Below, piece after piece: positions 1,131 through 44,593 of a DNA stretch of 64,000 bases. The DNA lies in contig JAYXKI010000012.1 in assembly GCA_037892935.1 (NCBI GenBank), positions 682,001-746,000 on the forward strand, given 5' to 3'. Position 1 is the first letter of the stretch. Every line of letters begins with the position of its first letter. This DNA comes from Phlebopus portentosus. Taxonomy: Eukaryota > Basidiomycota > Agaricomycetes > Boletales > Boletinellaceae. Made by a program: the position numbers and the translations under genes. Under the pieces are notes generated by a model, which was given only the letters and a program-made list of their open reading frames with translations, searched no databases and had not been told where the DNA came from.

Positions 1131-1188
1131 ACAATAGTACGCGGGGTGTCCTGGGTATGGCATAGGGGAGTACCGCCCTTACAGGCCT

Positions 1189-5151: not shown

Positions 5152-5331
5152 CTTACACAGCATTGTTAAGATACTGAACGGCTTCGGATTTGCATCTATT
5201 ATATTCACAATCATGTTCTGCTCTTACAAGTAATGTATCAACATGTTTTGGTACTTATAAATTGTGGACAATAATGATACGTGGTTGACGGACAATGCAT
5301 GACCATAAAATATCTATATCGATTACACTAC

Positions 5332-15849: not shown

Positions 15850-15906
15850 TTTCGCAAACGAGTGAAATGCGCTTTGAGGAAGAGACTACAGGCCTAACTT
15901 GAGCCA

Positions 15907-17710: not shown

Positions 17711-17768
17711 TGTCAGCTCGCGAATAAGATCCCTTAGGATGGAGATTTTCGTCTGATTTGACTCTCGT

Positions 17769-17775
17769 TTTATAC
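17769..17775 (-). promoter_or_regulatory. TATA box of secreted paralog B
   Basis: TATAAAA on the minus strand lies 59-65 bases upstream of the ATG at 17710. Confidence 0.6.
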
Positions 17776-19070
17776 GATTGTAGACGCACAACGCTTCGTC
17801 TGTTCCGTTCAGGACGAGTCTCTTCTCATCCGCTTGGGGCTAGCCCACAAGTCCTAGTCTGTTAACGTCAGAATACTGGTGACGTGGTCCGAAACCTATC
17901 CTTGAGGAGCCGCAAGCTATGTACGGCTTCAACGGGACAGTCCTTTCGACCAATGAGAGTCAATAGGAACTCTATAGCATCGGCAGGTACACTGAAAGAT
18001 TCGTAGCACATGGCCCTTGAACAAAGAATTCGCAACGCACCGTGCATCATCACACGTAAATGCGTACTCCAGAAGATCATGAAGCCTCGGCATCCTGGTC
18101 GAACTTGCACGATGTGCGGTTCTTGTCGAGTAAAAGAACCATACAATGCGGAAGAGACATATGTAGATCGTCGCTCAGAGCGCCGCCGAAGGCAACTCTG
18201 TGATCACATATCCAGAAACAGTAGCGGGCATGCTACGTTCCTGGCTATTTCGAGCCCCAGCGACTTGTGCACCGCCAGATGCAAGGCACGCCCTTCCCGG
18301 AAGCCTACTTCCGTTCCAGGTACTTTCTGGACTTTTTTTTTTTTTTTTTTTTCCCCCGAGCCCAGGTTCCGCGGTTTACCTCAACGCCGCTGTAAGATTG
18401 CACCGCGGTGTCTTGAGGAAGAGAAGAAGAATAATCTTTTGTTTGTATTCTGCCCGTGGTCATCAGACATGAGTGGTGCCTTGAAATTCGCGGTATGAGA
18501 GAATGCAGGAAACAGGTCCTGACGCAACGAAGGCGTCCTCCTTGCCGAGCGGTAGAAACTCTCCAACGTCGAAGCATTGTTCTGACTCAAATAAGGCCAA
18601 ATAATATCACGTGCTCAGTTACCGTTCTCACAGCTGATCTTCCAGATTTCAATTGACAGCCATTTTATTTTCCACAGCTCCAGAGGGATGAGCTAGGTCA
18701 TGTACAGGACCACTTCTTCATTATAAAGTACTACTGAAATCTTAGAGGGTAAGTATCGCTGATATTTTATTTGTTTGGCTCCAACCAATCACATATCAAA
18801 GTTAAGAAGCTCTCAGGTTTATGTAAAAGTCACCGCGGAGAAAAACACAGCCACGGATGACTGTGTTCTGTCTATCATCTGCCTTTGCCCGGGGTAAGAG
18901 CAAAGCGTAGTTGATGCCGATCGTAGGCGGAATCGTGAGTGGTTTCAAAACCAGTGAATCGCCATGACATGAGCTAACTTACGTGAACACGGAAGGACCT
19001 GACGGGGGGGACGATCGGTGAGTTTGACCGCTGGCTAACGTAACGTTGAACTGTGATGTCCATTCTACAG
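17776..19070. other. Intergenic region with a poly-T run
   Basis: I find no supported gene. A run of about 20 T's (18332-18352) is followed by a short CCCCC stretch. Open frames on both strands are short and lack recognisable domains. The first exon of the DUF6533 gene should lie in the last few hundred bases but could not be fixed; an ATG at about 18916 is one candidate. Confidence 0.45.
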
Positions 19071-25825: not shown

Positions 25826-25831
25826 TATAAA
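25825..25831 (+). promoter_or_regulatory. TATA box of secreted paralog C
   Basis: CTATAAA lies about 108 bases upstream of the ATG at 25939, followed by a pyrimidine-rich leader (TTCCTTTTAATTTTCTTTCG) that is typical of well-expressed fungal genes. Confidence 0.55.
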
Positions 25832-25938
25832 GATGGCCAGTTTCCCATAAGTCTTTAGAGTTACTTCCCGGGTTCTTTCATCCTTCATCCTTCTACTTTC
25901 CTTTTAATTTTCTTTCGTTTTATTTATCGTCTGGAACG

Positions 25939-26842
25939 ATGAAGCTTCTTACCACTCCTTTGATCAGTCTCACTCTCTCCCTCGGTGCTCTGGGAGCCAC
26001 GGTCCAGATGCGTGCCCCTCACGGTGGCAAGGCATCGGGTGTTGAAAAATGTCCGTCTGCCTACATCCTGACCACGCAACTCATCCAGGCTGGTGACATC
26101 ACCGTCAATCGATCGACGTATGCTTGCCCGGATAACAGCCTGCGTGAGGCGGCGCAGACGCCTCTTCCGTCTACGAAGAAGATCCCTAAGCAATCGTTCG
26201 GAAGACGTGGTGCGTTTGAAGCTCGGAACGCCGCGGAATGCAGGAACCCCGCTCCCGAGTGCCAATGTAGCCAGAGTTGTGAGTTACTTGAAGGATATAA
26301 ATGTCTACCGGTTGATGTAAATGATTTCCTGTTAGTTCAATGCAGTTGCCAGAACGTCACAGCTCTGGCTCCCAACCCGGGTGATTGTGCATCTCTCATC
26401 TCGTCTACGTCGGTGATTTCGCAGGCGGCGGGCCCGACATTCACAGTTCAGCCAGATAATTTTGAGCTTATTAGCTTTGGTACCTGCGCGCTGGAATGGA
26501 CTAACTTGTCAGTTTCTTCTGCGACTCATCTCTGCCGTGCACCTTCACCTTACATGTTTCTCGCTTATAGTGGTTGTTCGCCTCTTGAATACTGCTGGGA
26601 TGAACTTGTCCGTATTCTTCACACATCTTCAGTTCTCATTAATGCTGATACTCTCTACCATGGATCTAGGGTGACACTGGAGGTGTCGTCAACCAACTGT
26701 GCTTTGAACAGGGCGGCGGAACAGCCGCCGCATGCGAAGCTGACAACGACCTCTGGCTTTTGCAGTAAGCATGATGTTGCAAACGCATTGGATAGTAGAG
26801 CTGATCTCCACATTCTTTAGATCCCTTCGTGTTGGTTCTTGA
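25939..26842 (+). CDS. Secreted cysteine-rich protein, paralog C
   Basis: The signal peptide is MKLLTTPLISLTLSLGALGA. Family motifs follow in order: KCPSA, YACPDNSLRE, NAAECRNPAPECQCSQ, CSCQNVT, GDCASLI, AAGPTFTV, FGTCALEWTNL, LEYCWDEL, GDTGGVVNQLCFEQGGGTAA and DNDLWLLQ. Four short introns interrupt the gene (donors near 26279, 26510, 26617 and 26774). The last splits the Gln codon and leads into a tail, SLRVGS, stopping at 26840-26842. The Arg-Arg before GAFEARNAAEC may be a propeptide cleavage site. The last exon and 3' flank are duplicated as a relic at 33752-34000. Secretion is confident; the molecular role is unknown, and a Y3-like glycan-binding fold is a loose guess. Confidence 0.8.
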
Positions 26843-27035
26843 ATCAGAGTGTGGAAGCTGCCAGTCCAGAGAGTTTGAGATGGATGACTATGCTTCGCGA
26901 TGTTTCGTTTCAGTCGGGTTTCATGTACATCTTTCTGGGTCGATAATTTATGACTTTTGGTCTATGGTTGTCAGTGCTACATGTATATCTGCATGCATGA
27001 ACGTGCGTATGTGAAAGGGAGTAGAAAAGATAATA

Positions 27036-30000
27036 CTACGAAGACGATGTATAATCCTGAATGGCAAGCTTCTTGTGCAAGTCGGCGGCTTCAAGTGTCA
27101 ACACGACAACCGGCATATCCGGACGATCGACAGGTTGGGTCTTCCAACAACGCTGCATGAGCTCCCACACATTGACGGTAAGGCCCCTGTGCTGCTCCGG
27201 CCATCCAGGTCTCTTGTCATTGACAGCAACTTCTGTTACAACTGCTCCGTCATTCAGGTCGGCGAACGGGACCGTACCAGAGAAAATCTATCATATGCGT
27301 ATTAGTGCAGAACGAAATTCGAGGAAAGAGTACAGTTTACCTCAAAGCAAACGCAGGAGAAAGCATACACATCCGACTTAGACGTAGGTCGAGTGGAGTC
27401 CCTGCCAAAACGATCAGGATTCAGGAGTTCTGGAGCTTGCCAACGTGCTGATCCTGTGCCACTGAAAGATGTCGCGGCCGTGACGCCCCGTGAGTCAATC
27501 ACCCTCGCAAGACCGAAGTCAGTGATTTGGGGTTGGCCATTCGGATCCACGAGAACATTTACCTGTGTACCATCACAGACAATCAAGCCAATTTGTACAG
27601 TAGTATAGTAAGTAAATACTTACCGCTCGAAGATCGCCATGGATGACTTGCGGGTTTAGGCTATGAAGATACCCGAGACCACGCGCGACACCTAATGCCT
27701 ATACGTTCGTGTTAGCAGCTATTGTGCATATCTCTGATATAAATCGCTCTGTACCAGTATTAAGCAATCTGCCGAAGATTCCTCACTCAGATACTTGTTG
27801 AGACTTCCTTTATCCATCCAGTCTGAAACAAGGGCCAGCCGAGGCGATTCGGAGTTAGGAATGGCAGAACATTGGGATGATTTAGTCTTCTCCAAACTAG
27901 GGCCTCCTTGCCGATTTCCTGGAAGTCACCAAACATCACCGATCAAGATTGGTATTGGAAGTCGGGTGCTTACTCGTTGCTTCTTTTCCTTCTCGTTACC
28001 TGTGAACAAATAGAGTCGTAGAAATTTCAGAGCGACTGGCTTCCCTTTATATTCACCCTTCCAAACGTCAGCAAAGCCTCCTCCATGCACAGCATTTGAT
28101 CCAACTCGAAGAATGTTGACCAAGAATATGTCTGAGGGGAGAATCCCTCGTTTTTCAACCGTTGACTTCAGGAAGCGATTAAAGTGGCGAGCATTGCAAG
28201 ATGTAGAGTGATCTATCGCCTAATGAAATAGGTTTTGAGCTCGATACGTCATAAGTAGGTAGACTTCACGTACGAGCTGGACTTGGTCGACAAGGTTTTG
28301 TAATGCAGCATCGTTCAATTGATGAAGGTCCTCCATGACGGCAGCATCTCCCAGGCGAGATAGGTCCCGAAAAAGCTCTCCAACAGTCATCGTAGACCTG
28401 AACTGCCCTTTTATTCCCTGAATGGTCCCCGTAAATGCAAAGGATTGATCAAACGGTTCGTCTAGGCTTGTCGTAAGCCCTCGGCTTGACGTGGAATTAA
28501 CACTCAGGTCGCTATGATCGGAACCATACCCTTGGCGTGCTATGCTTATTGCTTCTCGAGTCAGTTCCATCATGTAGATCGTTTCCTCTTGCGGTGCAAA
28601 AACTTCATCGATGTCTGGCTCCCGTCTGCTCGTTATCAGAAACCGAAAGGCTTTAGGTAATTTCGGAAACTCCGTCCGGAAAAGTTTCATCAAACTACGT
28701 CGGGTCTCCGGCGTGCCACATTCGTCGAGGGCGTCGATAACGACAACGACAGGTGGCTCTACATGACGTTCTGCGGCAAGGAGTGGACGTAGGAGTAGCT
28801 TATTGAATTGCTGCATTGCAGTTGCCGAGGCGATGTCCTTGTCGTTCTCGATTTCTGCAAGAATACTCGATCCAATGGACGAATCGAATAGCGACAATTT
28901 GTAAGCGATCGTTCTGATCACAGATGATGGCTTGCTCTTTCCTCTTTCAAAAAAAAGGAAGGCACCAAGGCGAGTCATGTCTCGTACGTGATCCGCAATC
29001 GTTGTACTGATGGTACTTTTTCCACATCCTACAATACCATGAAGCCAGAAAATGTTCTGCATCGTATCAGAAAATACCCATTCAAGTATGCCCTGCATCA
29101 CTTCTGGGCGGGACCCAGGAAGACAAAGAGGACGATCAAACGCGTCCATATGACTTGGATTGAGTCGTTGACGTAAAACTGATAGATGATTATAAGTATT
29201 AGTTGCTGAGGATTCAAGATTACCACATACATGTATCATTGTTTCGTTGCGATTCACGATGTGCAACGAGAACAGAGTACAAGGTTAGTCCCGAATCGAT
29301 TTGTTCCTTGAAATTGTTTATTTCCTGTTCGAATTCTTTTATTTTTTGAGAGTTCAGAGCGGCTCGTCCTTGAAAGGATGGTCACTAATAACAGGACTAA
29401 ACATTCAGGTCGACAATCTCACCTAGGAAACTGCGCGGAGTGTGCTCTTGGACGAAGATACAACATTCGATAACTTTTTTCAGGAGCCCTTTAATGGGCT
29501 CTTGAACCTGAAGACCGGCAGCTTCATCCGAAAATTCCTGCAGCTTGGTAACGAAATCAAAGGTATTTGCTAAGTTGCGGACAAGATTGATAATTTTTTC
29601 ATCGGCATGAAGATGATTGGCAGTTTTCTAATGAGCAATTAGCTCCCTGTCGGTGGACTACCATGATCGCTGCAAATGAAACATACGGTATAAAGAGTCG
29701 AGATAATACTCCATGTTAACTTTACGAACGGATTGATCTTGGTAGAGTCAGCGACAAAACACACTTAAAATGAAACTAAGTACTTGCTTCGGACAAGTTA
29801 TCGATAACCGTCTCAAACGCCATTAATCTGGACGTTAACATGTTGAGGGATTGGTGAAGCTCTCCCTGAGCGTTTGACTGTGCCGCTTCAACCATGCGTG
29901 ACACCGCATCTACACGGCTGCCAGCTAATTGAATTTCGGTGGATTCTATAGAGTCAATGACTTCAAGATGCAAGACTATGACACCCCGGAATTTCATTGA

Positions 30001-30499
30001 GTTCACTTGAGAAGATCCACGCAATTCAACGTGCACTACATGGCCTTCATTGGTCAACACACGGGGATGTAAATGGCTCTGAACATTACCTTCTCCATTA
30101 GCAGATCTCGCCAGTAGCTCTTCAAGCGAGACATCAACAGATCCAACATTAGGATCTGACAACAAAACTGCATCATGCCTGACTCGTATTGCGAAGGTCG
30201 CGTCTCTATCCGAGGAAGAGCTGCGTATCTCCATTTAGATGTACGAAGTTCAGCAGTGTGCTGGCTACGCACAATACAAGCAGCTCATCCCAGAAAGGAG
30301 TTCGGCTATTCTTGATTGTTCGCGTCTTTCTGCAAACACTATGAAGCTCCACGTCCACATAAAGGTCAGGTATCCTGCTATGTAGAGGATGCTTCCACTG
30401 TATATCCTCAACGCGTATCACTGAATCGATGTTAAATTGGACTAAACACGATACGATCCAGAAAAATTCCGTACCTCTTAGACAATAATCAATGGACAT
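27036..30499 (-). pseudogene. C2-NACHT-protein kinase fusion gene, copy 1 (frameshifted kinase)
   Basis: From ATG 30499 the exons encode, in order: a C2-like domain (IRVEDIQW, RIPDLYVDVEL, TRTIKNSRTPFWDELL, then ATFAIRVRHD, 30400-30130); a helical STAND N-terminal region (about 29780-29300); and a NACHT NTPase with Walker A GIVGCGKST (about 29030) and Walker B VVVVIDALDECG (about 28730). The winged-helix part seen in copy 2 is missing. After a helical linker comes a kinase: GGGFADVWKGEYKGKPVALK, HGDLRA, TDFGLAR and SARWQAPELL, with its stop at 27036. Exon phases are continuous, so this looks like one gene. At about 27850-27860, 16 bases present in both paralogs are missing after NHPNVLPFL, shifting the frame and leading to a TGA. 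The gene is divergent from the MLKL-like gene 1. An NLR-like sensor role is inferred. Confidence 0.7.
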
Positions 30500-30957
30500 A
30501 GTGCACGTAGGCAAGGACGGTTCTCATACCTTGTCCATTCTCGCCTTATAAACTCTTTCATCACGGCCGATGACGAGTAGCATGATAGGGGCTAAGCTAT
30601 ATACAGACTACTGTCGAGCATTGTACGGGGGCTGTCACCAATGAAGTAGCGCAGCCTTCCTATCTCCGTTCATCAAATAGTAATTACTTAGGCACTGCTG
30701 ACCTTGTTTATCTGTTTCAAATCGCATAGGCTGCGCTGTATTTTTGAATGTGCCGAAATCAGCGGAGCCGATCTGATGAGAACATGATTTCAATGCTGTT
30801 CTACGGAAGGTGCTTTGAAGCGTCCGCTTGCCCAGAGCCTTTCAATCATTCGCAAGCTCGACAGGCCAGGCGAGTCCAACCCCACTCGGTCAATTCCAGC
30901 ATGAATGGGCGGCTCCGCTCCAAAGAAAGTGTTCAGTGTGCCGCATTCACGTTAGGT

Positions 30958-31533
30958 TTAGTAACTTGAAGTCGAGAAGATCAGACCCTGCAGATAGCAC
31001 AGACACAGGCGCTTACTTATTTTAGGGCACATTTCGCCAATATGAATGAACTGCCGAACCTTCCAAAAGCGCAAGTAGATACAACAGGCAGGACAACTTT
31101 GTTCTGCAAGAGGAAGTCGTGAAGTAAAGCGAAGGCCAATGTGCGGCATGTGGAGAGTAATATGTCCGCAGAAGCAGCACCCATCAACACGAGGAAAGCG
31201 CAAGGCAAGCACGGGAACACAGTCATCTACGCGATAGAGTTCTGACCATTCTATTTCGTTCTTTTGTTGTTTTAACTTGCAAGGTGGAGTTATTGTGGTG
31301 AGTGCCTGCCGTAGGGCGTTATTAGCGAAGTGTTGTCTGCATTGACCTGTGAGCGGAAATGGTTGTAGTCTAAGTCCCTTGAGTAAGACTTGAAGTCCGT
31401 CCGACTGTGATCCAAGAAGAAACACCGTCACGTGGGAGTGAACCGGGAGCACAGTCGCGAACGGTCCTCGCGTCGGTGCTGTTGCTTGTACTGCAAACAA
31501 TGCACAAACACTGATGTTCAACGAAGATAACAT
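30958..31533 (-). CDS. Small unrecognised protein, possibly secreted
   Basis: This minus-strand frame of about 191 residues starts MLSSLNISVCALFAVQATAP, a plausible signal peptide. The rest has paired cysteines (CCFCGH, SCPACCIYL) but matches no family I know. A short intron (GTAAGC donor at about 31016, CTGCAG acceptor at about 30993) could alter the C-terminus. It lies between the divergent NACHT-kinase 1 and MLKL-like 1 genes. The matching position in the second module holds a DNA-level relic of it (about 39036-39330), so it belongs to the duplicated unit. It is real as conserved sequence; coding status is only moderately supported. Confidence 0.5.
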   Translation of the reverse strand: MLSSLNISVCALFAVQATAPTRGPFATVLPVHSHVTVFLLGSQSDGLQVLLKGLRLQPFPLTGQCRQHFANNALRQALTTITPPCKLKQQKNEIEWSELYRVDDCVPVLALRFPRVDGCCFCGHITLHMPHIGLRFTSRLPLAEQSCPACCIYLRFWKVRQFIHIGEMCPKISKRLCLCYLQGLIFSTSSY

Positions 31534-31731
31534 TCGGAAGCTGACCTGTATTAGACAATGTTCCTGATGGTCCATCAATTAAGAGCTACTTATACCTACA
31601 TGGCACTGGTACAGCCCCAGGTAAGCGCCTGAAGCCCCACTCACTGCTGTCGACGTCCCCGTTAGACAAGCTCGACGCAACCTACGGTCTCACTCAGGGT
31701 TGTTTGGCACGACCTGTTGCGCAGAGCAATC

Positions 31732-33658
31732 ATGACTTTCAGCTCGGGACTAAGAGTAGCTGTAGGGACTACGGTGGATCTCACGGTCATCGCGGCGGGC
31801 TTTGCCCCAGTGCCAGGTCTTTCAGCGGTGGCAGGGCTTGTTGCTGGAATCCTTAAACTTTGCGACGACGTCCGAGTAAACAAGTATGAAACCTCACTTT
31901 TTTCCCCTGCCTCCGTGGGGCAATCAATCTGACAGATGCTCATCCTACGCTAGGAATGCGATTGTCGGCTTGGGCAAACGCTGTAACGAGTTGCTCCTTG
32001 TGTTGGACGAGGGCTCCAAGTCTACTCCGGACAATCTTCGTATTATGGTAGATTCAGCCCAAAAGTGTGTGTTTCTGACGATTTCTGGCGCCTAGCACTG
32101 ATGTTTAACCATATAGGCTGCTTGAGGATATCAAAGAAAAGATCGATGCATGGGCCAATACGTCTCTTTTCAAACTCATTTTCAAACGGAACGACATCGC
32201 TGAAGGCGTCAAACACTACCATAAAGAAATCGACAGTTTTCTGGAAAGCTTCAATATCGCTTCGCATCTCAAGGTCCACTGCCGCTTGACAAACTTTGAT
32301 CGACAAAGGAAAGAGGATCAAAACGAGCTCATCAATTACTTTTCGGATTTCAAGAATAACCATCAGATTATGCAAGAGACTATCGTTGCAAAAGTTGATG
32401 AAGTCAAAGTTGTCATGGGAGTTATCCAAGAGGTACTTTTAGACCCGTATAATACATGAAACGTGAGCTGAAGGTTCCTTTCAGACTATGGGAAACTTTC
32501 CAGTCGGAGATGAGCAGCACAAGGGATTGAAGAAGAATCTGTATACCATGCAAGAGACTTCTGGCCAGCTTCTTCCGAGAATAGAGCTGAAGTCTGACGA
32601 GGTTCGCCGCGTCAGCGGGCATCCTATCCGAGGCAGTGCAGTATTTGACGTTTGGGAAGGCGAGTACCTCGGTCAAGCAAAGTGTGCCATCAAAGCCGTC
32701 CGCACCATTGAAGTCACGCCAAAGATTCGGGATGTATGTCGCTCCATATACTTGCAATTGATAAGTCATGCTCAGCTACATATCCTGTAGCGGTTATTGC
32801 GAGAAGTGAAAATCTGGCGCAAAGTATGGGAAGACGACAAGGGGGAACACATACTTCCCTTCTGGGGCGCTTGCTTTGATGATGGTCCATATCCGTTCGT
32901 GTCCCCTTTTGAACAACCTCTTCCTATTCTGACGCCTCGTCCTAGCTACGTGGTCAGTCCGTGGATGGAATATGGCGATGCTATCTCGTATGTCAATAAG
33001 TATCCATATGTCAACCGGAAGAAGATTATTCGCCGCATCGCCGAGGGAATTAGATTGCTTCACTCTTACGAGCCTCCAATCGTGCACGGCGACATCAAAG
33101 GTGCTAATATCCTTATTGACCAGAAGGGCAATCCACTCCTTGCCGACTTTGGCCTTTCAAAGGTCTGTGTCCCTTTCCGGTTCTGATAGACATAAGATAT
33201 GTTGACTTGAGTCTGGTTCAGATGATGGAAAACCTGACGGGTATGCCACCCACCCAGAGTTCCGGTGTATCTGAGTCATATCGGTGGTTCGCACCGGAGT
33301 TGTGTTCTGCACCTGGTATTCTGAGCCCAGCTTCGGATATGTTCGCGTTTGCCATGACGGTGGTCGAGGTCAGTTCTCACGAGGTGACCTGTTTCCCATC
33401 CATGCCTTTAGTCTCATCAATCGTCTTTTTGTACCACAGCTGATTACCGGCCAGCCACCTTGCTCCCACATAAAGCGGAACCCTGAGGTGCTCATCAAGA
33501 TACAGCAAGGTGAACGTCCGCTCAGGTCAATGAGTACCGAGGTCATCGAGCGTGGGCTTGATGACAAGCTTTGGAATCTTCTTACGCGATGCTGGGCTGC
33601 GGAGCCCGGTGAGCGTCCCACCATACACGAAGTAATCTCTGAGCTACCTTCCGAGTAA
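31732..33658 (+). CDS. MLKL-like protein: N-terminal helical bundle plus protein kinase, copy 1
   Basis: There are seven exons (31732-31883, 31954-32064, 32117-32432, 32485-32733, 32791-33162, 33222-33368, 33440-33658) giving 521 residues in frame. Residues about 1-190 are an alpha-helical bundle of the kind annotated as MLKL_NTD in mushrooms ([71 protein letters not shown]). The kinase follows: CAIKAV (Lys), LLREVKIW (Glu), [26 protein letters not shown] and [11 protein letters not shown]. All catalytic residues are present, unlike animal MLKL, which is a pseudokinase. In animals and plants the bundle permeabilises membranes when the kinase part signals. By analogy this may be a cell-death executor, which is inference. 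The kinase half is nearly identical to copy 2. Confidence 0.8.
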
Positions 33659-33751
33659 TTTGGATATCGACTTTCAATTCCGTTCGTGCTTCTTTCGTTG
33701 CTTTGTTGCTTGCTTTGGATCGCTTGCTGTGTTTCGTTCGTTCTCTACCTT

Positions 33752-34000
33752 GGATTTAGGGTGAAACTGGAGGAGTCGTCAACCAACTGTGCTTCGAACA
33801 AGGTGGCGGAACAGCCGCCGCATGTGAGGCCGATGACGACTTTTCGCTCTTGCAGTAAGCGTGACAGCTCTAACTCGCTATACTAGCGAAACTGACGTTC
33901 AATGCTTCAGGTCGCTCCGTGTCGGCTTTTAGAGAATTTGCTGGCCGAAGAGTGCGAGATGGGATGACTTGACTTCGCAATGTTTCATTTTGTTCGGGTT
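33752..34000 (+). pseudogene. Relic of the 3' end of secreted paralog C
   Basis: This stretch closely matches the last two exons, final intron and 3' flank of the gene at 25939-26842. It begins GATTTAGGGTGAAACTGGAGG, reads in the matching frame VNQLCFEQGGGTAAACEAD, has the same split Gln codon and GTAAGCGTGA donor, then GTCGCTCCGTGTCGG encoding SLRVGF and a stop near 33930. No upstream exons are present. It abuts the 3' end of MLKL-like gene 1, on the same strand. It marks duplication or recombination of the block that includes secreted paralog C. Confidence 0.85.
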
Positions 34001-34128
34001 TCTTGTACACCTCTCTTATTCGGGCTTGGTGGTCACGAAAAATTAATTATTTCCCTATGGAAGACATCAAGTCCTACAAATCGCAGTGAAACGTGTATTC
34101 AAACCAGAGCGATAGATTTCTACTGGTG

Positions 34129-37100
34129 CTACTCCGGCGTCGGCGTGATTTCAGTCTCAGAAGGCTCCCTAATAGATATAACTTCTTCAAATTGGGACAC
34201 AACGGACAACATGTCAGGTCGCTCGTTAGGCCACGTCTTCCAGCAATCCTGCATTATCGACCATACATCATCCGTCAGACCTTTTTCAGTTGCCGACTGT
34301 CCGGGCCGCGATGGTCTCTTGTCACGAACGGCAACAGCTATGAAAACCGCTGCTTCGTGGAGCCCAAAATAAGGAATCTCTCCGGTAAAAATCTATAGCA
34401 ATAGCGTTTACTAAAGTGAGAAAAATAGCTACCCAAAAATGAGACTCGCCTCAAGACAGACACACGAGAAAGCATACACATCGCTCTTGGTCGTAAGCTT
34501 GTGAAGCTCCTTTCCAAACCGATCCACATCCAAGAGCTCCGGGGCCAGCCATCGATGAGCGCCTATACCTTGAAAAGATGTTGCATTCGAGAAAGATTGC
34601 GAATCGATGACTCTAACAAGGCCGAAGTCGGCGATCCGAGGCTCAGTACTGTCATCAATAAGAACATTAACCTGAGCATGGTTAGCTGGATTCTCCATAA
34701 CATCGCCGCTGAAAGGCACTTACAGCACGTAGATCGCCATGAATGACCTGTGGCTTCAGACTATGAAGGTATTCAAGGCCCCGTGCAACACCTAAAGACT
34801 AAGAATACGACTCGAATTAGCACTGAGATTCAGAAAATATTCTTTCTTAATCACCAATTTTAGGCAATCTGCGGAAGGAGTATTCTTCAAGTACGCGAAG
34901 AGATTCCCTTTCTCCATCCAATGGGACACCAATGCCATCTGGGGTTCGAACACATCCCGACATATACCGAGGAATGGGAGCACATTTGGATGATCCAGCT
35001 TCCGCCAAACCAGAGCCTCCTTGACAAATGCCTGTGGATGTTGTTAGTCAGCTCCCCATGCTAAGAAAATCAACTACATAAGTAAATACTCACGACATGG
35101 ATTTCGTCCATGGTTGAAGATGGAAGTATGCGCAATACTTTCAGTGCTACTAGCTTTCCATTATGCCAACCCTTGAAAACATCAGCAAAACCTCCTCCAT
35201 CCACATATATTCTGCTAGAAACACGTATGCCATTCAAAAATATATTTGAGGCAAAGACTCCCCGTTTCTGCGCCGCCAACCTCAGAAAGCGTTCAAGTTT
35301 CTGAGCTTGACAAGGTTCAACATGGCTCATTATCTATTAGCGTCATACGCATATGATCAAATTGCAGTATAATTGATATGGTGGTTCCACGTACGGAATA
35401 AGCGATGTCGACATTTCTCTGTAGCGTATTATGATCTGTTCTGCTGGTATCTTCCAGGATGACGGTTCCGATGAACTGGTCCATAACTTGAACAGTACAC
35501 CCGGTGCAAAGCTCTACAATGTCTTGTTTGGCAGCTACAGCACCAGCTAGTTAGTAACGCGCTAATCTCTTCTCCAACAACCACTCACGTGTTGTACATA
35601 AGGATTCCATTGCCCATTTGATTCCGGCGTCTTCTTCTATAGGTACAGTCTGTTCTGTTCTTTCATTTTCGGCGCTTGTTCCAGGGTCTATTACTGCTAG
35701 TGAGTTAGAAGATGTTCTGACTAATCTCCTTCATCTCTACTCACTTATTTGATATATGGAGTCTGTCTCTGTCACCAGTGTGATCGTGTCCGCCTTTTCC
35801 ATAAGCGTAGATTGTCCTGATGCATTGCTCTCGATGAACCACGGTTTGCCGGAGCATTCTGACGACGAGAAATAGGCTTTAAGCGATGGATGGAAAAGGC
35901 TGACAAATCCTCCAGAATATGTGAGTATACTCTGAATTCTTGACAGAATAAGACGCGAACTCTCAAAGTTACGGAAACCTAGGGTGCTGTCTATCTCCTC
36001 GATCGAGATAGGTGAGCCACTAGAAATAAGCAAGGACATAACCCTTCCAAAGCGGTTTCTCGCATTCTCGCTTCCCCAATCGATCCATGAGTCACGAAGG
36101 ACAGACTCATACAGCTCGTACAGACCGAATCGACAAAGTGAAAGAGGATCCGACGCTAGACTATCGATCGTATGTAAGGGTATGTCACTGAAACGGACCA
36201 GCGAAACCGCTTTCGAAGCCCAGGCGAACAGTCCACCTGCAGCGTTACCGAGCAAGGCGAGCTTTTCATCCCAATCCCAATCATTCGGAACGTCGTGCCC
36301 AACGATACGACGCATTTCGACGTGAAGGTAGGAAAGGACATCCCGTTGACTTGCCGGTGACGTGTGCTCTAGCTCTATACTATACACGCTTTCCGGATGC
36401 GAAGAGAAGGCGTTGTCGATATCTGCGGCTCGCCGGCTTGTTATGAGGAAGCGGAAGGTGCCAGGTAGCTTTGGGAACTCTTTTGAAGAAGATCGAGCAA
36501 ACCACGACGTGTATCGGGTGTTCCACACTCATCCAGAGCGTCAAGAACGATGACAACGGGTCCGCAAAATCCTCCGGCATTTAAGAGCGGCTTTAATAGC
36601 AGTTTCCTAAACTGATCTCCTGGGGATGCTGTAATGACCTCCTTATCTTCTTCGAGCTCCCCGAGAATATTGCCTCCGATTGTAGAATCGAGCATTGCTA
36701 GACTGTATGCAATCGTTCTAATGACAGATGACGACTCGCTCTTTCCTCTTTCGAAAAATAGAAACGCGCCAAGTCGCGACATGTCGCGAAAGTGTTGTGC
36801 GATCGTTGTGCTGACAGCACTCTTGCCTGATCCTGCAACGCCGTGCAACCAGAAGATGTTACGCCTGGCCCCCGAAAATATCCAATCAATTATTTTCTGA
36901 CGAACTTCCACGCGAGTATTGGGGAGACAAGTCGGTCTACTGAAGGCGTCCGAAAGGCTTGGGTTAAGCCGCTGGCGTAACACTGGCAGAGCGTGAGTGA
37001 AACACTTGATGAAGCGAATTAAATGCGTACTAAGATCGTCAATCTTTCGTGGCGTCCTCATTGAAACAACAGAAGTGTAAACAACTACGCCTGAGTCGAT

Positions 37101-38372
37101 TTGCCGCTTGAAGTTCGCAAATGCTCTCTCAAATTCGTCGATCTTCTGCGTACTCGTTATGTCAAGCATCCGTCTCGGATCTAGAATGAATCATTTAGTT
37201 GGTCATCGTAGGCCTGAGTTGATGGACTTGCTCAGAAAACCACGAGTCCCGCAACAAGAAACAAAGAGACAGCACTCGATCGTCTGCTTCAGGAGACCAT
37301 CGACGGGCTGTTGAAGACTGGCCACCTTGTCTTCGAGTATCTGATCGTAGACGAAAACGAATGCATCATCCATACTGCGGACAAGATCGATCATTTTCGG
37401 GTGAGTTTGAGGGACATTCTGAACAACCTAGTGGACAAGTTGCGACAAAACTTTTGAGTGAGTACAGCGATGAATGGCTCACTGAAAGTAACGCGCTGGC
37501 CAACTTCCGTGCTATGGTGAGAAATGGATAGATCTGGACAGTGTCGGAAATAAAGATATACGATCTATCTCGAGCACGCTCTTCGGACAAAGTCTCCATG
37601 ACTTGCTGGAATGTCTTCAGTTTCGTTACCAGTGCCTCGACAAGTTGATACAGCACTTCCTGGGTGGAGAATTGTGACACTTGATCGTTGATCGACTCCG
37701 TGACGTCAGAAGCGGCACCGTCCATCACGGGTTGGACGAAATAGGCGTCCTTCCAGTCCGATGCGAGACTGATATCGGCACCGGTCTTGTCGGTAACACC
37801 AAGGTACAGAATGATACGCCCTGTAATCTTCCGTATAACACGCTCTGAATACAAGTCGTGCGGTTCTTTCGACGTTATTGAAAGGTCAAGCATAGCTGGG
37901 AAAGCGGTCTGTGATGAGAAGAGTAAATGTACGCTGGTGGAAAAGTACCATCGTCTCCTAGCCCCAGGCGGCACTTTTCGAGGAGATCGGCGAGCTCAAT
38001 CTCGACACAACCAACGCAAGGATCCATAGACCACCAAGATTCATGCTTCACCTGGATTGTCAAAGGTACACGATGATCTGAGGACAAACTGCACGTCCTG
38101 CTTTAGTACATAAGGGCCAGAGTTCACTTTGAATACCCACAATGAGATGGATTCGTCCCAGATAGGATTATGGTTTCTCTTGACTGTCCGCGTCCTTCTC
38201 GTTCTCGCGATGCCACCTAGCTTACATTCTACATAGAGATCCGGGACTCTACTATACAAAGAAGGCTGCCACTTCAAGTTCTCAGCGCGAATGACTGTAA
38301 TGGAGGATTATTAAATTCAGCTCGCTCTGTCAAGCAAACCTCCTCACCTCGCAGATGATATTCTCTGGGCAT
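34129..38372 (-). CDS. C2-NACHT-winged helix-protein kinase fusion, copy 2 (one-base frameshift)
   Basis: From ATG 38372 (MPREYHLR) the exons encode a C2 domain (IRAENLKW, RVPDLYVECKLGG, RTRTVKRNHNPIWDES, PLTIQVKHESWWS), a helical STAND region (LLKQTIECCLFV, KIDEFERAFANFKRQ), and NACHT with Walker A GVAGSGKSAV (about 36835) and Walker B VVIVLDALDECG (about 36540). A winged-helix-like segment follows (ISIEEIDSTLGF, GGFVSLFHPSLKAYF), then a linker and a kinase (GGGFADVFKGWHNGKLVALK, HGDLRA, ADFGLVR, APELLD) ending at 34129. Linker exons from 35737 to 35330 join NACHT to kinase in continuous phase, which supports one protein of about 1,200 residues. An A-run near 36485-36492 is one base short, breaking the frame between LLDLL and KEFPKLP. 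That could be a mutation or a sequence error. An NLR-like sensor role is inferred. Confidence 0.75.
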
Positions 38373-39035
38373 GATGGTAGGATCACGAGGAGCAACACGT
38401 GTCCTGTATCCAGACGCGCACCGCAGAGGGTCTAATGACCAAGCGCCATGATGCGCGCTGGTACCTGTATCAAAGCTAATCGAGGCTGTCCGCTGTTACG
38501 GCGGGGCAAAGAGATGGAGTCGTAGTCGCAGCATCGAACTTAGCAGAAGCCGTTAAGTCAGATTGATGATATTAATATCCGATCCGAGCCGTAGGTATAG
38601 CCTTAGAAAGCGGACATATGATGTATGCGACTCGGAAGACACCTCGCTGATCGTTTGGAACCAAGACTTCCCAGTTCGTTGAGGCACTGAACAAGAAGAC
38701 AATCAAAAGTTCCTCGCCATCAGAATCTCATATCGGGCGCGGAAAGACACAGCATGGCATGAGACATCGAACCAATTGTTCCCGGGCCGCTATCAAGGAA
38801 ATAACATCCCAATTATTTCCCAAGAGCTAAAAGCATCGACAGCAAATACAGGCTCTTATAGATGGACACCCAGCCCAAATACACTTGCAGCGGCAGGGTT
38901 GTTCGGTGAACATGGTTCAGCGCGACCAATAGAGCCAGCCGCGAGCCCTCCGACCTCGTCTCGCAGTTCGATCGCGCCGGACAAATACTGAGAAGGCCGT
39001 GCCATGCACAGTCACGCCCCGGTACAGTTTCCACA
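38373..39035. other. Promoter-side spacer of the second module
   Basis: No gene is recognised. It lies upstream of the minus-strand NACHT-kinase gene 2 and corresponds in position to 30500-30957 of module 1. Confidence 0.45.
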
Positions 39036-39330
39036 TCAGTTCCTTCGGCAACCTTTTGTTAGCCGGACGCAGAAACATCGACCTTCATGACATAGAATCA
39101 GCTTCAGGCACATACCGAAGAGAAAACAACTTCGCTTTGCGGGAGGTATCCGTAAGACGTCAAAATCAAGGTCACCGTGCAGTATGTAGACGGTAATGTA
39201 CTCGCGGAATCGGCATCCATCACATGGAGAAAGACGCGAGACAAGCGCTGAACACAATTAAGAACACCACGATAGAGTTCTGATCATTTGATATCATCCC
39301 TTTATTGAATTTGCTCGTCGTTTCAGACGG
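39036..39330 (-). pseudogene. Relic of the small gene found at 30958-31533
   Basis: The minus-strand DNA retains GATCAGAACTCTATCG and GATGGATGCCGATTCCG, matching GGTCAGAACTCTATCG and GATGGGTGCTGCTTCTG of the module 1 gene. At the protein level DGCRFREYIT, LHGDLDFDVLR and FGMCLKLI align with DGCCFCGHIT, MPHIGLRF and CCIYLRF. The frame is short and the N-terminal half is unrecognisable or frame-broken. It sits between NACHT-kinase 2 and MLKL-like 2, exactly where the intact copy sits in module 1. Confidence 0.65.
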
Positions 39331-39764
39331 CAATTCGATGAGCGCTTGTCGATGAGAAAATCTGAATGGCACATCCTTTGCACTGCATTGCAGGAATTCG
39401 ATGTTTTTGCGTCGTCAGACGATACATCCCGTTGGCAAGAAGGCTTTTGAAATACAGCGGCTAAAGACCATCTTCAAGTTCGTGGGGGAGGAATCGGTTG
39501 TGAAAGGTGAGTCACAGTCACGGTGTCACGTCGTGCTTAACATACCTTGTTCACTGACCAAACATGTCTACGCTCATGTTCGTTCGACGAAAATATACAC
39601 CGGCAGCGGATCTGTACTGGGCATCTTCCTGATGGATCGTCGATTGATAGCTATATATACTTACAGGCGACTGAACATGCGGCAAATTAACGCCTGAAGC
39701 TCCACGCAGTCCACTCATGGACCAGTGATTCCACTGCTCTCACTATTGTCTGGGATAACTCATC
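39331..39764. other. Upstream region of MLKL-like gene 2
   Basis: No further gene is supported. The AT-rich segment near 39645-39665 (TATATATACTTACAGG) lies about 100 bases before the ATG and may hold the promoter. Confidence 0.4.
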
Positions 39765-41703
39765 ATGACCTCCAGCTCGGGTCTGAGAGCAGCTGTAGGG
39801 ACCACAGTGAATCTCACGGCCATCGTAGCAAGCTTTGCTCCAGTACCAGGCCTTTCTGTGCTAGCAGGCCTTGTTGATGGAATCCTTAAGCTTTGTGATG
39901 GTGTCCGAATAAACAAGTGTGTACGCTTTATATTCTTCTCTTGACTTGCCTTCGTCACACAGTGGTGCTTTTTGACTGACACTTGTCCTACTCCAGGAAT
40001 GAGATTCGTGGCTTGGGTAAACGCTGTGATGAGCTGTTGCATGCACTCCAGGACTGCACGAGTTCAAGCCCTGATAATTTGCAGACAATGATTGACGCTG
40101 CCGAGAAGCGAGTAATCGGGCTCATTCCGAACTCTCGATCACTCACGCGACCAAATCACTTAGATTGCTTTCGGATATCAAAGACCGGGTTGCCGTGTGG
40201 GCCAAAAAGCCATACGCCAAACTCATTTTTAAACAGGACGAGATCGCTGAAGACGTGAAACGTTACCACAACGAAATTAACTTTTTCCTGGAGACCTTCA
40301 CCTTAGCTTCGCACATAAAGATTCATCGCCGCCTGACAAGCTTTGAACGGCAGAGACAGGAAGATAAGAACGAGCTCATCAGTTACCTTTCGGATTCCAG
40401 GAATAAGGATCAGATTAAGCAAGACACTATTGTCGCAAAGGTTGATGAAGTTATAGGCGTAATGGAAGTGATGCAAGAGGTCTATACTTTACTTGCGTCA
40501 CCTCTCAATTGTGAACTGAACTTTCCTTCAGGTTATGGGAAAATTTCCAGTCGGAGATGAGCGGCACAAGGGATTGAAGAAGAATCTGTATACAATGCAA
40601 GAGACTTCTGGCCAGCTTCTTCCGAGGATTGAGCTAAAGTCCGACGAGGTTCGCCGCGTCAGCGGGCATCCTATCCGAGGCAGTGAAGTATTTGACGTTT
40701 GGGAAGGCGAGTACCTCGGTCAAGCAAAGTGTGCCATCAAAGCCGTCCGCACCATTGAAGTCACGCCAAAGATTCGGGATGTATGTCGCTCCATACACTT
40801 GCAATTGATAAGTCATGCTCAGCTACATATCCTGTAGCGGTTATTGCGAGAAGTGAAAATCTGGCGCAAAGTATGGGAAGACGACAAGGGGGAACGCATA
40901 CTTCCCTTCTGGGGTGCTTGCTTTGATGACGGTCCATATCCGTTCGTGTCCCCTTTTGAACGATCTCTTCCTATTCTGACGCCTCGCCCTAGCTACGTGG
41001 TCAGTCCGTGGATGGAATATGGCGATGCTATCTCGTATGTCAATAAGTATCCATATGTCAGCCGGAAGAAGATTATTCGCCGCATCGCCGAGGGAATTAG
41101 ACTACTTCACTCTTACGAGCCTCCAATCGTGCATGGCGACATCAAAGGTGCTAATATCCTTATTGACCAGAAGGGCAATCCACTCCTTGCCGACTTTGGC
41201 CTTTCAAAGGTCTGTGTCCCTTTCCGGTTCTGATAGACATAAGATATGCTGACTTGAGTCTGGTTCAGATTATGGAAAACCTGACGGGTATGCCATTCAC
41301 CCAGAGTTCCGGTGTATCTGAGTCATATCGGTGGTTCGCACCGGAGTTGTGTTCTGCACCTGGTATTCTGAGCCCAGCTTCGGATGTGTTCGCGTTTGCC
41401 ATGACGGTGATCGAGGTTAGTTCTCATAGGCCCAGGGCGTCCATCCACGTCATGATTCTGATCGTCCGTCTCTCTGCACCGTAGTTGATGACTGGGCAGC
41501 CGCCTTGTTCCCACATAAAGCGGAACCCTGAGGTGCTCATCAAGATGCAGCAAGGTGAACGTCCGCTAAGGCCAACGAGTGCCGAGGTCATCGAGCGTGG
41601 GCTGGATGACAAGCTTTGGAATCTTCTTACGCGATGCTGGGCTGCAGAGCCGGGTGAGCGTCCCACCATACACGAAGTGATCGCTGAGCTACCTCCAGAG
41701 TAA
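39765..41703 (+). CDS. MLKL-like protein: N-terminal helical bundle plus protein kinase, copy 2
   Basis: There are seven exons of exactly the same lengths as copy 1 (152, 111, 316, 249, 372, 147 and 219 bases): 39765-39916, 39997-40107, 40164-40479, 40532-40780, 40838-41209, 41269-41415 and 41485-41703, encoding 521 residues. The second intron must use a GC donor (GCGAGT at 40108) to keep phase. The N-terminal bundle (residues about 1-190: PVPGLSVLAGLVDGILKLC, IRGLGKRCDELLHAL, DEIAEDVKRYHNEINFFLE) is clearly diverged from copy 1, while the kinase exons 4-6 differ at about ten residues. The catalytic Lys, Glu, HGDIKGAN and DFG are intact. The gene is divergent from NACHT-kinase 2. A role as cell-death executor is inferred by analogy with animal and plant MLKL. 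Confidence 0.8.
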
Positions 41704-41716
41704 TTTGGATATCACA

Positions 41717-42342
41717 ATTCCGTTCGTGCTTGTTTCGTTGCTTTCTTGCTTGCTTTGGACTGCTTGCTCCGTTTCGTCCGTCTCCTCTATGCGTTTCCGT
41801 GTTGCTTGTATGTTGCGTTGTTCTCGATGGAATTTATTAGCGTATCGCTTTGACGTGCTGCCCTTGAAACGCCGTGTTATATCATCAACAAGATTCCGAC
41901 TGAAATCGGCAACCTGGAGATTTGATACGACGAACGACATATTCGGCTTATCCACCGGCTTCGTCTTTTAGCCGAGCCGCATATTAGACCATATATCGTC
42001 GATAATGCCTTTGTCGAATGCACAGACCATGATCGAAAGGTCTCTTGCCGTAAACGGCTACTTCCATGATGACATCTCTGAGTCCAGAGATTGCCGCTTT
42101 ACTGGAGAAAATCTGACGCTGATTGCTTTGGAAGATACGCGTGAAGGCAAGCATAATACAGACCTCCGCCAAATGCACGAGGAAGCATCAGCGTCGGTTT
42201 TTATTGTGAGTTTGCCTGACTCCCTGCTTGGTCGAGCAGAATAGAGGAGCTCCGGAACTCGCAAATGTATCGCTCCCTTTCCTTTGTGGGAAGTTGCGAT
42301 TGAAGTATCTCGGGAGTCAGGGCCTAAGCTGAGCCAAACCAT
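41717..42342 (-). pseudogene. Relic of a fourth protein kinase C-terminus
   Basis: Minus-strand fragments align with the kinase of the gene at 42466-44593 but with frame changes. HKGKGA...VPELL and GKLTIKTDADASS (42342-42180) match FKGEGSARWQAPELL and KVSEKTDVYAFSC. IFSSKAAISGLRDVIMEVAV (42120-42060) matches IFTGKVPFAGLRDATVISEVAV. NMSFVVSNLQVADFSR (41955-41900) matches DMPFVVSRLEEAECSR. Nothing upstream of the activation segment is left. It lies tail to tail with MLKL-like gene 2, the position a NACHT-kinase gene occupies after MLKL-like gene 1. Confidence 0.75.
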
Positions 42343-42465
42343 AGAATCATCAAACTTCCGAAATAAATTATCCGTGCAATTGTAAGTATGACAACAAGTA
42401 TGTACAGTGACGTGAGCTGATACCAGAATAAATCGTTTATCATCACTACAGCCAGTGACTCGTTC

Positions 42466-44593
42466 CTAGCTAGCTCTAGAACATTCAGCTTCTTCAAGAC
42501 GAGATACAACGAATGGCATATCTGGTCTCTCATCAGGCCATGTTTGCCAGCACTCCTGCATGATGGACCATATGAGTTCCGTCAAGCCCTTTTCAGCTGC
42601 AGAAGGGCCAGGCCAAGTTGGCCTCCTGTCATGCACAGCTACCTCCGAGATAACTGTTGCGTCCCGGAGTCCAGCGAAGGGCACCTTTCCCGTGAATATC
42701 TGCGACATGATCAATTCGTTCACACGCTCCAGACTTGAACAGCTTAACATACCTCGAGACAGACGCACGAAAAGGCATATACATCGGTCTTTTCCGAGAC
42801 CTTGTAAAGTTCCTCTCCAAAATAATCTATATTCAGGAGCTCTGGAGCTTGCCAACGTGCAGACCCTTCGCCCTTGAATGAGGTCATATTTAAAGATGTT
42901 CCGTGTGAATCAATGACCTTTGCGAGGCCAAAATCAGCGATTCGAGGCTCTTCGTTGTCATCGATGAGAACATTGGCCTATATGCCTTATTAGTCAGATC
43001 TTCCCATACGAAATCTAGTAACTAACAAATACATACCGCTCGCAGGTCTCCATGAATAATTTGAGGTTTTAAACCATGAAGATATTCGAGGCCACGGGCA
43101 ACACCCAGTGCCTGCACGCCGGGACCGAATCAATTTATGTTAAATACCACGATGCTTTCTTTCTCACCAATTTCGGACAGTCCGCAGAAGGGGTCTGACT
43201 TAGATACTCAACAAGACTGCCTCTCTCCATCCAACGTGACACCAGAGCTATCTGAGGTGCAAACTCGTCCCGCAAAATTCCGAGAAATGGAAGAACATTT
43301 TGGTGAACTAGCCTTCTCCAGAGGAGAGCTTCCTTAATGAACTCCTGTTAGAAGTGAGAAATGTGCATAATATATATTCAAGGAGTAAACACCTCACGAG
43401 CTTCATTCTCTCTCTATCTGGGAAGCAAAAGAGGCGCAAAACTTTGAGAGCAACTGGCTTGCCTTCAAACTCGCCCTTCCAGACATCTGCGAAGCCTCCG
43501 CCTTGAACAAAATTTGTCCCATCTCGAAGAACACCAGTCAAGAAGATACTCGATGGGAGAATTCCCCGCTTCTCTACTGTCGACTTTATGAAGCGGTCAA
43601 GCTTGCGAGCGTCTCCAGATACGACGTGGTCCATTTGCTTATAAATTAGATGTATGAAATTCAGCCCCAATAGGTTTGTTAATCAGAGGAGCGACGCACG
43701 ATCTGAACCACGTCAACGACATATTGTAATATGTCGTCTTCCAAGCCGAGCAGCTCGTCCTTAGCATCACGATCAACGAAAACATCACAGAATTCATGTA
43801 AATCAGACACCAGAGCTTCCGAAATGATGTCCTTCCAAGAAAGGCCGCAGGCAGTAAAATTCTGAATGCCAAATGGCGATTGATATGATGTGAAAGGTAT
43901 GTGCATAAGCTTTGAGCCATTCTTACCACAGGCAGTGTGGTATACTCCATGACATCCGCTATTACTTTCAGGATGTCATGGATCATCTTGAGTGAATCAA
44001 CGAAATTCCAGCTACACCATCGATCCAAGTGCCTACGGAATAGCACCAGTCTCCTTGGAGAAATTCAGTAATAGCCCATAACTGTAGTGTGCGTTCCTAC
44101 CTGCTAAAACGTGAACTACTAGTAAATTTCGTAACAAATTTAAGGAATTGGAGAGAATAATATGCGCTGAGCTTTACAAAATACTCTTTAGCATAATTGT
44201 TTGGAGTGTAGTGAAAATTATTCGCACTGGGAAGAATTCCATGCATCCTCTGATTTTAATCCAATCGGACGAATCATCATCATCTCCAACAGGCCAGGGA
44301 TTGTATGAGTCTTGAAGCAGACGATCACGAAGCATATGCATGGCTTTGTCCCTGTCATCTTGCAGAGACCTGCTTATGTACGTGCTTGGACTTAGAGGTT
44401 CTACTGGCTCAACGAATAAGTCGCTCTCGACCGACACTTCCGAGAATCTTCTCTTCCTTCCCAGAGGTGTTAATGATGCGATAACGTCTGTCAGTCGTTT
44501 AGTCCACCTAATGCGACGGCTTGAGCTCGTAAAAGATGGGCTTGCAGTCAATGAGAATGAGGGGGATGATGGCTCGAAGATCGAGGAAGACAT
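42466..44593 (-). CDS. Protein kinase related to the NACHT-kinase genes, without C2 or NACHT
   Basis: From ATG 44593 the protein starts with a Ser-rich segment (MSSSIFEPSSPSFSLTASPS) and a basic patch, with no C2 or NACHT. A helical linker (about 44050-43690, ending YVVDVVQI) resembles the linker between NACHT and kinase in copies 1 and 2, and the intron after it is at the same place. The kinase exons are intact: GGGFADVWKGEFEGKPVALK, EALLWRRL, NVLPFLGI, HGDLRA, ADFGLAK, GSARWQAPELL, DVYAFSCVCLE and CWQTWPDERPDM. The stop is at 42466. In all these kinases the usual HRDLK reads HGDLR. It may be a signalling partner of the neighbouring NACHT or MLKL-like proteins. Exon borders between 44215 and 43910 are uncertain. 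Confidence 0.7.

What the first reader, a model, noticed from the sequence alone, without database searches (positions are those of the whole stretch)
27036..44593. Tandemly duplicated module pairing a NACHT-kinase (NLR-like) gene with an MLKL-like gene
Two copies of a unit of about 7 kb have the same order and strands: a C2-NACHT-kinase gene (-), a small gene (-), and a divergent MLKL-like helical-bundle kinase gene (+) (27036-33658 and 34129-41703). A third half-unit follows. In animals and plants, NLR or RIP-type sensors act upstream of MLKL-type membrane-permeabilising proteins. A genetically linked sensor/executor pair in a mushroom would be a candidate cell-death or allorecognition system. 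The gene order and domains are seen; the functional link is inferred.
Basis: partly seen in the sequence, partly recalled or inferred. Interest (0 to 1): 0.93.

Follow-up and report, generated by a model that had tools for sequence, protein, structure and literature searches.

The report
Mushroom NLR-kinase and MLKL-like gene pair
In a Sanghuangporus mushroom genome, a gene with the same layout as the animal cell-death protein MLKL sits head-to-head with an immune-receptor-like gene that carries its own kinase; the pair was duplicated and is also linked in two related species, which makes it a candidate cell-death switch, although both receptor copies look damaged in this individual.

Summary
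The duplication is real: two copies of a head-to-head pair, K (C2–NACHT–kinase, minus) and M (504-aa kinase, plus), at 26652–33741 and 33742–41781. M is an MLKL relative by sequence profile: MLKL fills the top 7 of 16 PDB rows for 18 mushroom M N-termini (E 1e-5 to 9e-4; next 0.15), and AlphaFold of a relative gives bundle, brace helices and kinase (pLDDT 89). M belongs to an Agaricomycete kinase family whose catalytic residues are mostly intact, unlike MLKL. Locus tags put K and M together in S. baumii and S. vaninii. K is unusual: of 12 other C2–NACHT genes examined, 11 match WD40 repeats and none a kinase. Against: K1 and K2 both have frame breaks here, a third M (contig C5) is unlinked, the 'small gene' is not supported, and the 'third half-unit' is a separate kinase gene. 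M1 and M2 kinase halves look homogenised by gene conversion; both M copies are under purifying selection. Most likely an NLR-borne kinase activates an MLKL-type executioner without an amyloid relay; that functional link is inferred. New variant of a known kind.

The parts
27036..30499 (-). K1: C2-helical linker-NACHT(NPHP3_N)-TKL kinase gene; frame broken in the kinase N-lobe near 27856
   Evidence: close intact relative P0123 (S. sanghuang ACEPAF_1999)
30500..31731 (.). Divergent intergenic region between K1 and M1 starts (1.23 kb); two short blocks shared with copy 2; no supported gene
31732..33658 (+). M1: MLKL-layout kinase, 8 exons (31732-31883, 31954-32064, 32117-32432, 32485-32733, 32791-32894, 32946-33162, 33222-33368, 33440-33658), 504 aa, open
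   Evidence: matches P0001
31732..32432 (+). M1 exons 1-3: MLKL-type four-helix bundle and first brace helices (residues about 17-193)
   Evidence: (model of the relative P0002)
32485..33368 (+). M1 exons 4-7: 93-100% DNA identity to M2 including introns 4-6 (proposed gene-conversion tract); exon 8 and tail are also similar, intron 7 is not
34129..38372 (-). K2: C2-linker-NACHT-kinase gene; one-base frame break after Walker B near 36480
38373..39764 (.). Divergent intergenic region between K2 and M2 starts (1.39 kb)
39765..41703 (+). M2: second MLKL-layout kinase, 8 exons, 504 aa; intron 2 (40108-40163) has a GC donor
   Evidence: S. vaninii counterpart P0002
42466..44593 (-). K3: TKL kinase gene with its own N-terminus and no NACHT match; kinase related to those of K1/K2; upstream exons uncertain
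26652..26936 (.). Left edge of the duplicated unit (3' end of the secreted-protein ORF), repeated at about 33742-34016

Best explanation
The locus encodes a two-gene regulated-cell-death module. K is a STAND receptor (C2 membrane-binding domain, helical linker, NACHT ATPase) whose usual C-terminal WD40 sensor has been replaced by a kinase. On activation the NACHT domain oligomerises, the kinase domains are brought together, and they phosphorylate the neighbouring product M. M has the full MLKL layout (four-helix bundle, brace helices, kinase-fold domain): phosphorylation of its kinase domain would release the hydrophobic N-terminal bundle, which oligomerises and permeabilises the membrane. The NLR thus carries the RIPK3-like step itself, and no amyloid relay is needed. 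Shown: domains, MLKL homology, head-to-head duplication, linkage in two relatives, selection on M. Inferred: the K-to-M phosphorylation, membrane damage, and the trigger (allorecognition or defence).
For: MLKL fills the top 7 of 16 PDB rows for a profile of 18 M N-termini, E 1.1e-5 to 9.3e-4, next row 0.15. Pfam MLKL_N matches 35 of 67 family members at E<=0.01. The confident model of P0002 shows helices 17-24, 30-46, 51-74, 76-101, 105-110, 112-132, four further helices, then kinase. K-M linkage in S. baumii and S. vaninii. K's kinase is exceptional: of 12 other C2-NACHT genes examined, 11 matched WD40 and 0 a kinase on the same gene. K starts with C2 and M ends with the kinase, so the usual places for an amyloid motif are taken. 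M's kinase is closest in PDB to RIPK4 (2.7e-21), with TYK2, RIPK2, TNNI3K and IRAK4 also high. M1/M2 dN/dS 0.21 (exons 1-3) and 0.25 (exons 4-8). A hydrophobic 19-residue stretch starts at residue 19 of M1/M2, mean hydropathy 1.87/1.95.
Against: Both K genes are frame-broken in this assembly. The C5 copy of M has no K neighbour, and K's N-terminal region was found only in Sanghuangporus (5 proteins), so linkage is at best a genus-level feature. M has catalytic residues and may act as an ordinary kinase. The K linker did not match the M bundle profile and K's model was unusable outside C2 (pLDDT 36). PMC9815663 (passages) concludes that amyloid signalling between NLRs and MLKL-type domains does occur in Agaricomycetes, so a relay of that kind is not excluded here; no motif scan was run. 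No expression, phosphorylation or toxicity data.
Confidence: 0.42

Rival explanations
1. M is a conserved mushroom signalling kinase whose MLKL-type bundle anchors or regulates it; it does not kill. Next to K it is a local duplicate with no functional link.
For: Family spread over Agaricomycetes, 36-46% identical to P0002 outside its nearest rows, with mostly intact catalytic motifs; the ancestral-type copy on C5 is unlinked.
Against: Cluster copies form a separate clade on a long branch (0.52, support 100/100) in the N-terminal tree; linkage persists in three species although the N-termini have diverged; K is a rare NLR form.
Confidence: 0.33
2. A decaying locus: the receptor genes K1 and K2 are pseudogenes in this lineage, and M1/M2 are leftovers or have been taken over for other uses.
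For: Frame breaks in K1 and K2.
Against: K1's close relative P0123 is intact through that region, so the K1 break is allelic or recent; M1/M2 are under purifying selection; K2's one-base break could be an assembly error.
Confidence: 0.2
3. M and K are unrelated neighbours; repeated tandem duplication in a kinase-rich region put them together by chance.
For: Only one independent linkage event is visible; another kinase gene (K3) lies here too.
Against: Retention in S. baumii and S. vaninii; two copies keep the same head-to-head layout.
Confidence: 0.05

Closest known systems
Animal MLKL downstream of RIPK3 (necroptosis)
   Same: Bundle + brace + kinase-fold layout; MLKL is the best PDB match of the N-terminal profile
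   Different: M keeps catalytic motifs (MLKL is a pseudokinase: PMC12881547 section 18); the proposed upstream kinase is fused to a NACHT receptor; no RHIM-type relay was looked for or seen
Fungal NLR/HeLo pairs such as NWD2-HET-S (PMC10197012, passages)
   Same: NLR gene adjacent to a gene for a membrane-targeting bundle protein
   Different: That pair signals by amyloid templating; here both partners carry kinase domains
BaMLKL domains of basidiomycete NLRs (PMC9815663, passages)
   Same: Same domain class by description: extra N-terminal helix (hG) and short helix between h3 and h4, as in the model
   Different: That study limited separate BaMLKL hits to 400 aa, so 500-aa bundle-kinase proteins would be left out; it found no matching amyloid fragments in neighbouring NLRs, yet concludes from genome-wide pairs that amyloid signalling does occur in Agaricomycetes
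Fungal HELL-kinase proteins (review PMC12881547, passages)
   Different: No NLR with a C-terminal kinase beside an MLKL-layout gene appears in the passages and section read
C2-bearing NLRs of Basidiomycota (PMC4986451, passages)
   Same: C2 as N-terminal domain, reported there in a few Basidiomycota
   Different: K ends in a kinase; that paper lists PKinase among its NLR domain annotations, apparently N-terminal

Membership tests
MLKL-type proteins | N-terminal MLKL four-helix bundle, by sequence | tested here: met
   top 7 of 16 PDB rows all MLKL; 35 of 67 relatives. M1 and M2 alone score under Pfam's cut-off: 19.5 and 22.5 against 27 bits; M1's N-terminus alone found no MLKL in PDB
MLKL-type proteins | Brace helices between bundle and kinase-fold domain | tested here: met
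   predicted model of the relative P0002
MLKL-type proteins | Same fold by structural comparison with solved MLKL bundles | tested here: inconclusive
   the kinase domain fills the lists; the bundle was not searched alone
MLKL-type proteins | Pseudokinase (catalytic motifs lost) | tested here: not met
   VAIK Lys 66/67, catalytic Asp 61/67, DFG 67/67; P0003 (S. baumii) lacks the Asp
MLKL-type proteins | Membrane permeabilisation and cell death | not testable with these tools
   needs expression assays
Fungal NLR (STAND) | NACHT-type nucleotide-binding domain | tested here: met
   NPHP3_N 5.4e-29 (K1) and 1.1e-23 (K2 piece); NACHT 22.2 and 22.0 bits, under its cut-off of 26.7; Walker motifs read by eye; frames broken in this assembly
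Fungal NLR (STAND) | C-terminal WD40/ANK/TPR sensor repeats | tested here: not met
   kinase instead in P0121-P0123 and in K1/K2; 11 of 12 other C2-NACHT genes examined match WD40
Amyloid-signalling NLR/HeLo pair | Matching amyloid motif at NLR N-terminus and effector C-terminus | not tested
   no motif scan was run; the domains reach the relevant ends of K and M
Conserved sensor/executor gene pair | Linkage in related species | tested here: met
   locus tags and equal contig lengths in S. baumii and S. vaninii; orientation unknown; S. sanghuang ACEPAF not resolved; not tested outside the genus

The most novel reading that the evidence does not exclude
Mushrooms have a contracted necroptosis axis: an NLR that has swapped its WD40 sensor for a RIPK3-like kinase directly phosphorylates a genetically linked MLKL-layout executioner, so that a kinase relay replaces the amyloid relay used by ascomycete NLR/HeLo pairs; the intact or broken state of K varies between strains as expected for an allorecognition locus.
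Probability: 0.3. Interest if true: 0.87.

Novelty: new variant of a known kind. Interest (0 to 1): 0.68.

Why it matters
PMC9815663 (passages) reports hundreds of separate basidiomycete MLKL-like domains, with amyloid-like fragments in only a few of about 500 and none matched in neighbouring NLRs; it argues for amyloid signalling from genome-wide pairs, but what controls most of these domains is open. A linked NLR-kinase and MLKL-layout pair gives a concrete, testable answer and would unite NLR and RIPK3-to-MLKL logic in one fungal locus. The Agaricomycete M family is itself a large set of MLKL-layout proteins with mostly intact kinases, useful for asking how MLKL became a pseudokinase.

Tried and rejected
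Tried: PDB phmmer with the M1 N-terminus alone: no MLKL among 8 rows; the family profile was needed. Own-genome search with Pfam MLKL_N: no match at E<=1. hhalign of the K linker against the M N-terminal profile: probability near 0, so a second MLKL-type bundle in K is not claimed. AlphaFold of the K relative P0121 with 5 sequences: pLDDT 36, only C2 usable. Structure search with the whole M model: filled by kinases; MLKL's pseudokinase at Foldseek rank 33 is not specific, and the 50 VIA rows shown span only residues 169-504. First M models of 521 aa kept an intron, corrected; Pfam and the first homologue search used the 521-aa form. Rejected: positive selection in the M bundle (pairwise dN/dS 0.21; exon 2 alone gave no usable dS). 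Rejected: the missing stretch after NACHT in K1 as decay, since P0121-P0123 read similarly short there (by eye). Linkage beyond Sanghuangporus could not be examined. Papers: Sanghuangporus + NACHT gave 3 papers, none relevant by listing; the listings showed no report of this pair. Read: PMC12881547 passages and section 18; PMC9815663, PMC10197012 and PMC4986451 as passages; PMC8048060 outline and abstract.
Full report
Where it is. The window is contig C12:682001-746000 of a 38.4-Mb genome in 23 contigs. The M1 N-terminus is identical, but for one residue, to a protein named Sanghuangporus baumii (P0001). The M copy on contig C5 matches S. sanghuang P0004 at 98-100% in exons free of model differences, and K1 matches S. 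sanghuang P0123 at 92-98% in such stretches. I take the genome as S. sanghuang or a very close relative. Species names in this genus are often wrong in public data (PMC8048060, abstract).

Gene models. Models were built from splice signals and from agreement between the two copies, and M was checked against annotated relatives. K1 runs from 30499 down to 27036, M1 from 31732 to 33658, K2 from 38372 down to 34129, M2 from 39765 to 41703. K and M of each unit start head-to-head across 1.23 and 1.39 kb. The duplicated unit begins within the 3' end of a secreted-protein ORF: 26652-26936 recurs at about 33742-34016. K3 (42466-44593) is a separate kinase gene whose upstream exons are uncertain. The intervening 'small gene' is not supported: best match of its ORF 41 aa at 39%.

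What M is. Pfam's MLKL_N matches M1 at E 7.2e-4 and M2 at 8.5e-5, under the curated cut-off. M relatives are spread through Agaricomycetes: 170 proteins at E<=1e-20 among 7996 scored candidates, 120 listed, of which 11 carry MLKL_N in the precomputed column. I aligned 67 of the 120; 35 of 67 match MLKL_N at E<=0.01, best 3e-9. A profile from 18 N-termini picked from those 67 gives 16 PDB rows at E<=10: the first 7 are all MLKL (1.1e-5 to 9.3e-4), the eighth is at 0.15. The match to 4btf runs over profile positions 32-177 and chain residues 12-171, that is bundle and part of the brace. M1's N-terminus on its own found no MLKL in PDB. AlphaFold of the S. vaninii relative P0002 (67 sequences, pLDDT 89.2, pTM 0.84; residues 1-14 below 50) shows a short first helix, four bundle helices with a small helix between the third and fourth, four more helices and a kinase. 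The short first and the inserted helix are features that PMC9815663 (passages) reports for basidiomycete MLKL domains. Structure searches with the whole model were filled by kinases and do not test the bundle.

M is not a pseudokinase family: Lys of VAIK in 66 of 67, catalytic Asp in 61 of 67, DFG in 67 of 67. One exception is P0003, the S. baumii copy beside a K gene, which has Ala for the Asp; its gene model also lacks the VAIK region, so this is only a lead. M's kinase is closest to RIPK4 in PDB, with TYK2, RIPK2, TNNI3K and IRAK4 also high; the kinase of the K relative P0121 is closest to plant CTR1, TNNI3K and B-Raf.

What K is. C2, then a helical linker, then NPHP3_N/NACHT, then kinase. 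From the 62 match rows I picked and fetched 15 loci of 10 kb: 12 have C2 and NACHT matches; 11 of those 12 also match WD40 repeats downstream on the same strand, 1 has no C-terminal match, and none has a kinase match within the gene (one locus has a kinase match about 2.4 kb upstream). Two loci have NACHT without C2 and one has only a K3-like kinase. None of the 15 matches the M N-terminus. So K looks like a C2-NACHT receptor in which a kinase took the place of the WD40 part. K residues 1-350 found only Sanghuangporus proteins, 5 at E<=1e-3 among 3837 candidates of suitable length.

Linkage. The tag spacing in S. vaninii would fit the order seen here (M2, K2, M1, K1), but I could not see tags 9369 and 9370. 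Against general linkage: the third M of this genome (C5:271173-273124) has no neighbour that matches a window ORF in 262001-282000, and none of the NACHT rows (30) or 29 (62) lies on C5. Its S. sanghuang counterpart P0004 lies on a contig of other length than P0123; M1/M2 counterparts in that assembly were not seen.

History. In the N-terminal tree of 20 rows the cluster copies form one clade (100/100, branch 0.52) apart from P0004, which stands for the C5 copy; M2 pairs with S. vaninii 9368 (100/99) and M1 groups with S. baumii 2875 and P0001 (97/94). In the kinase tree M2 joins M1 and P0001 instead (91/74, not a strong fork). DNA agrees: introns 1-3 are 49-59% identical and intron 7 is 63%, but introns 4-6 are 94-98%; dS is 0.95 in exons 1-3 and 0.106 in exons 4-8 (profile). 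A gene-conversion tract over exons 4-7 explains this; exon 8 and the tail are also 85-97% alike, so a second tract is possible. dN/dS is 0.21 and 0.25, so both M copies have been kept under constraint.

State in this individual. K1 lacks 16 nt present in P0123, which breaks the frame in the kinase N-lobe; K2 has a one-base frame break after Walker B. P0123 is intact through the K1 region, so the K1 break is allelic or recent. The K2 break could be an assembly error. With these breaks the pair may not work in this strain.

Mechanism. See Best explanation. The steps shown are domains, homology, layout, linkage and constraint; receptor activation, K-to-M phosphorylation and membrane damage are inferred from MLKL/RIPK3 and NLR biology. 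The amyloid alternative was not scanned for. The domains reach the ends of K and M where such motifs usually sit, but PMC9815663 argues that amyloid signalling exists in Agaricomycetes, so it remains open.

Comparison with print. Fungal NLR/HeLo gene pairs, BaMLKL domains, and HELL-kinase fusions and gene clusters are already described (PMC10197012, PMC9815663, PMC12881547; passages and one section). In the listings of eight searches I saw no report of a kinase-bearing NLR beside an MLKL-layout gene in a basidiomycete; most subscription papers are not covered.

Noticed in passing
1138-4305: ORFs look like a Ty3/Gypsy retroelement (protease, reverse transcriptase, integrase-like; recalled, not searched).
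   Followed up: no
4682-5174 and 8332-8813: Inverted pair of about 480 bp; ORF pieces 82-96% identical on opposite strands.
   Followed up: no
15187-15885, 17139-17839, 25831-26817: Three related small protein ORFs that look secreted (by eye); the 3' end of the third marks the edge of the K-M duplication.
   Followed up: partly
K1, K2 and M2 introns: Several introns need GC donors (GCAAGT, GCGAGT) to keep the frame.
   Followed up: partly
P0001 versus P0003: Both are named S. baumii, yet P0003 is only 54% identical to the M1 N-terminus over 71% of it, while P0001 is nearly identical to M1 of this S. sanghuang-like genome: a species mislabel or different paralogues.
   Followed up: partly
P0092, P0099, P0102, P0090, P0095: Marasmius genomes hold near-consecutive M-like kinase genes (PM082_002153/2154/2156; PQX77_021227/021228), suggesting tandem expansion elsewhere.
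   Followed up: no
L043 4677-5810 (C12:1048677-1049810): A K3-like kinase gene without a C2 or NACHT match lies about 320 kb away on the same contig.
   Followed up: no
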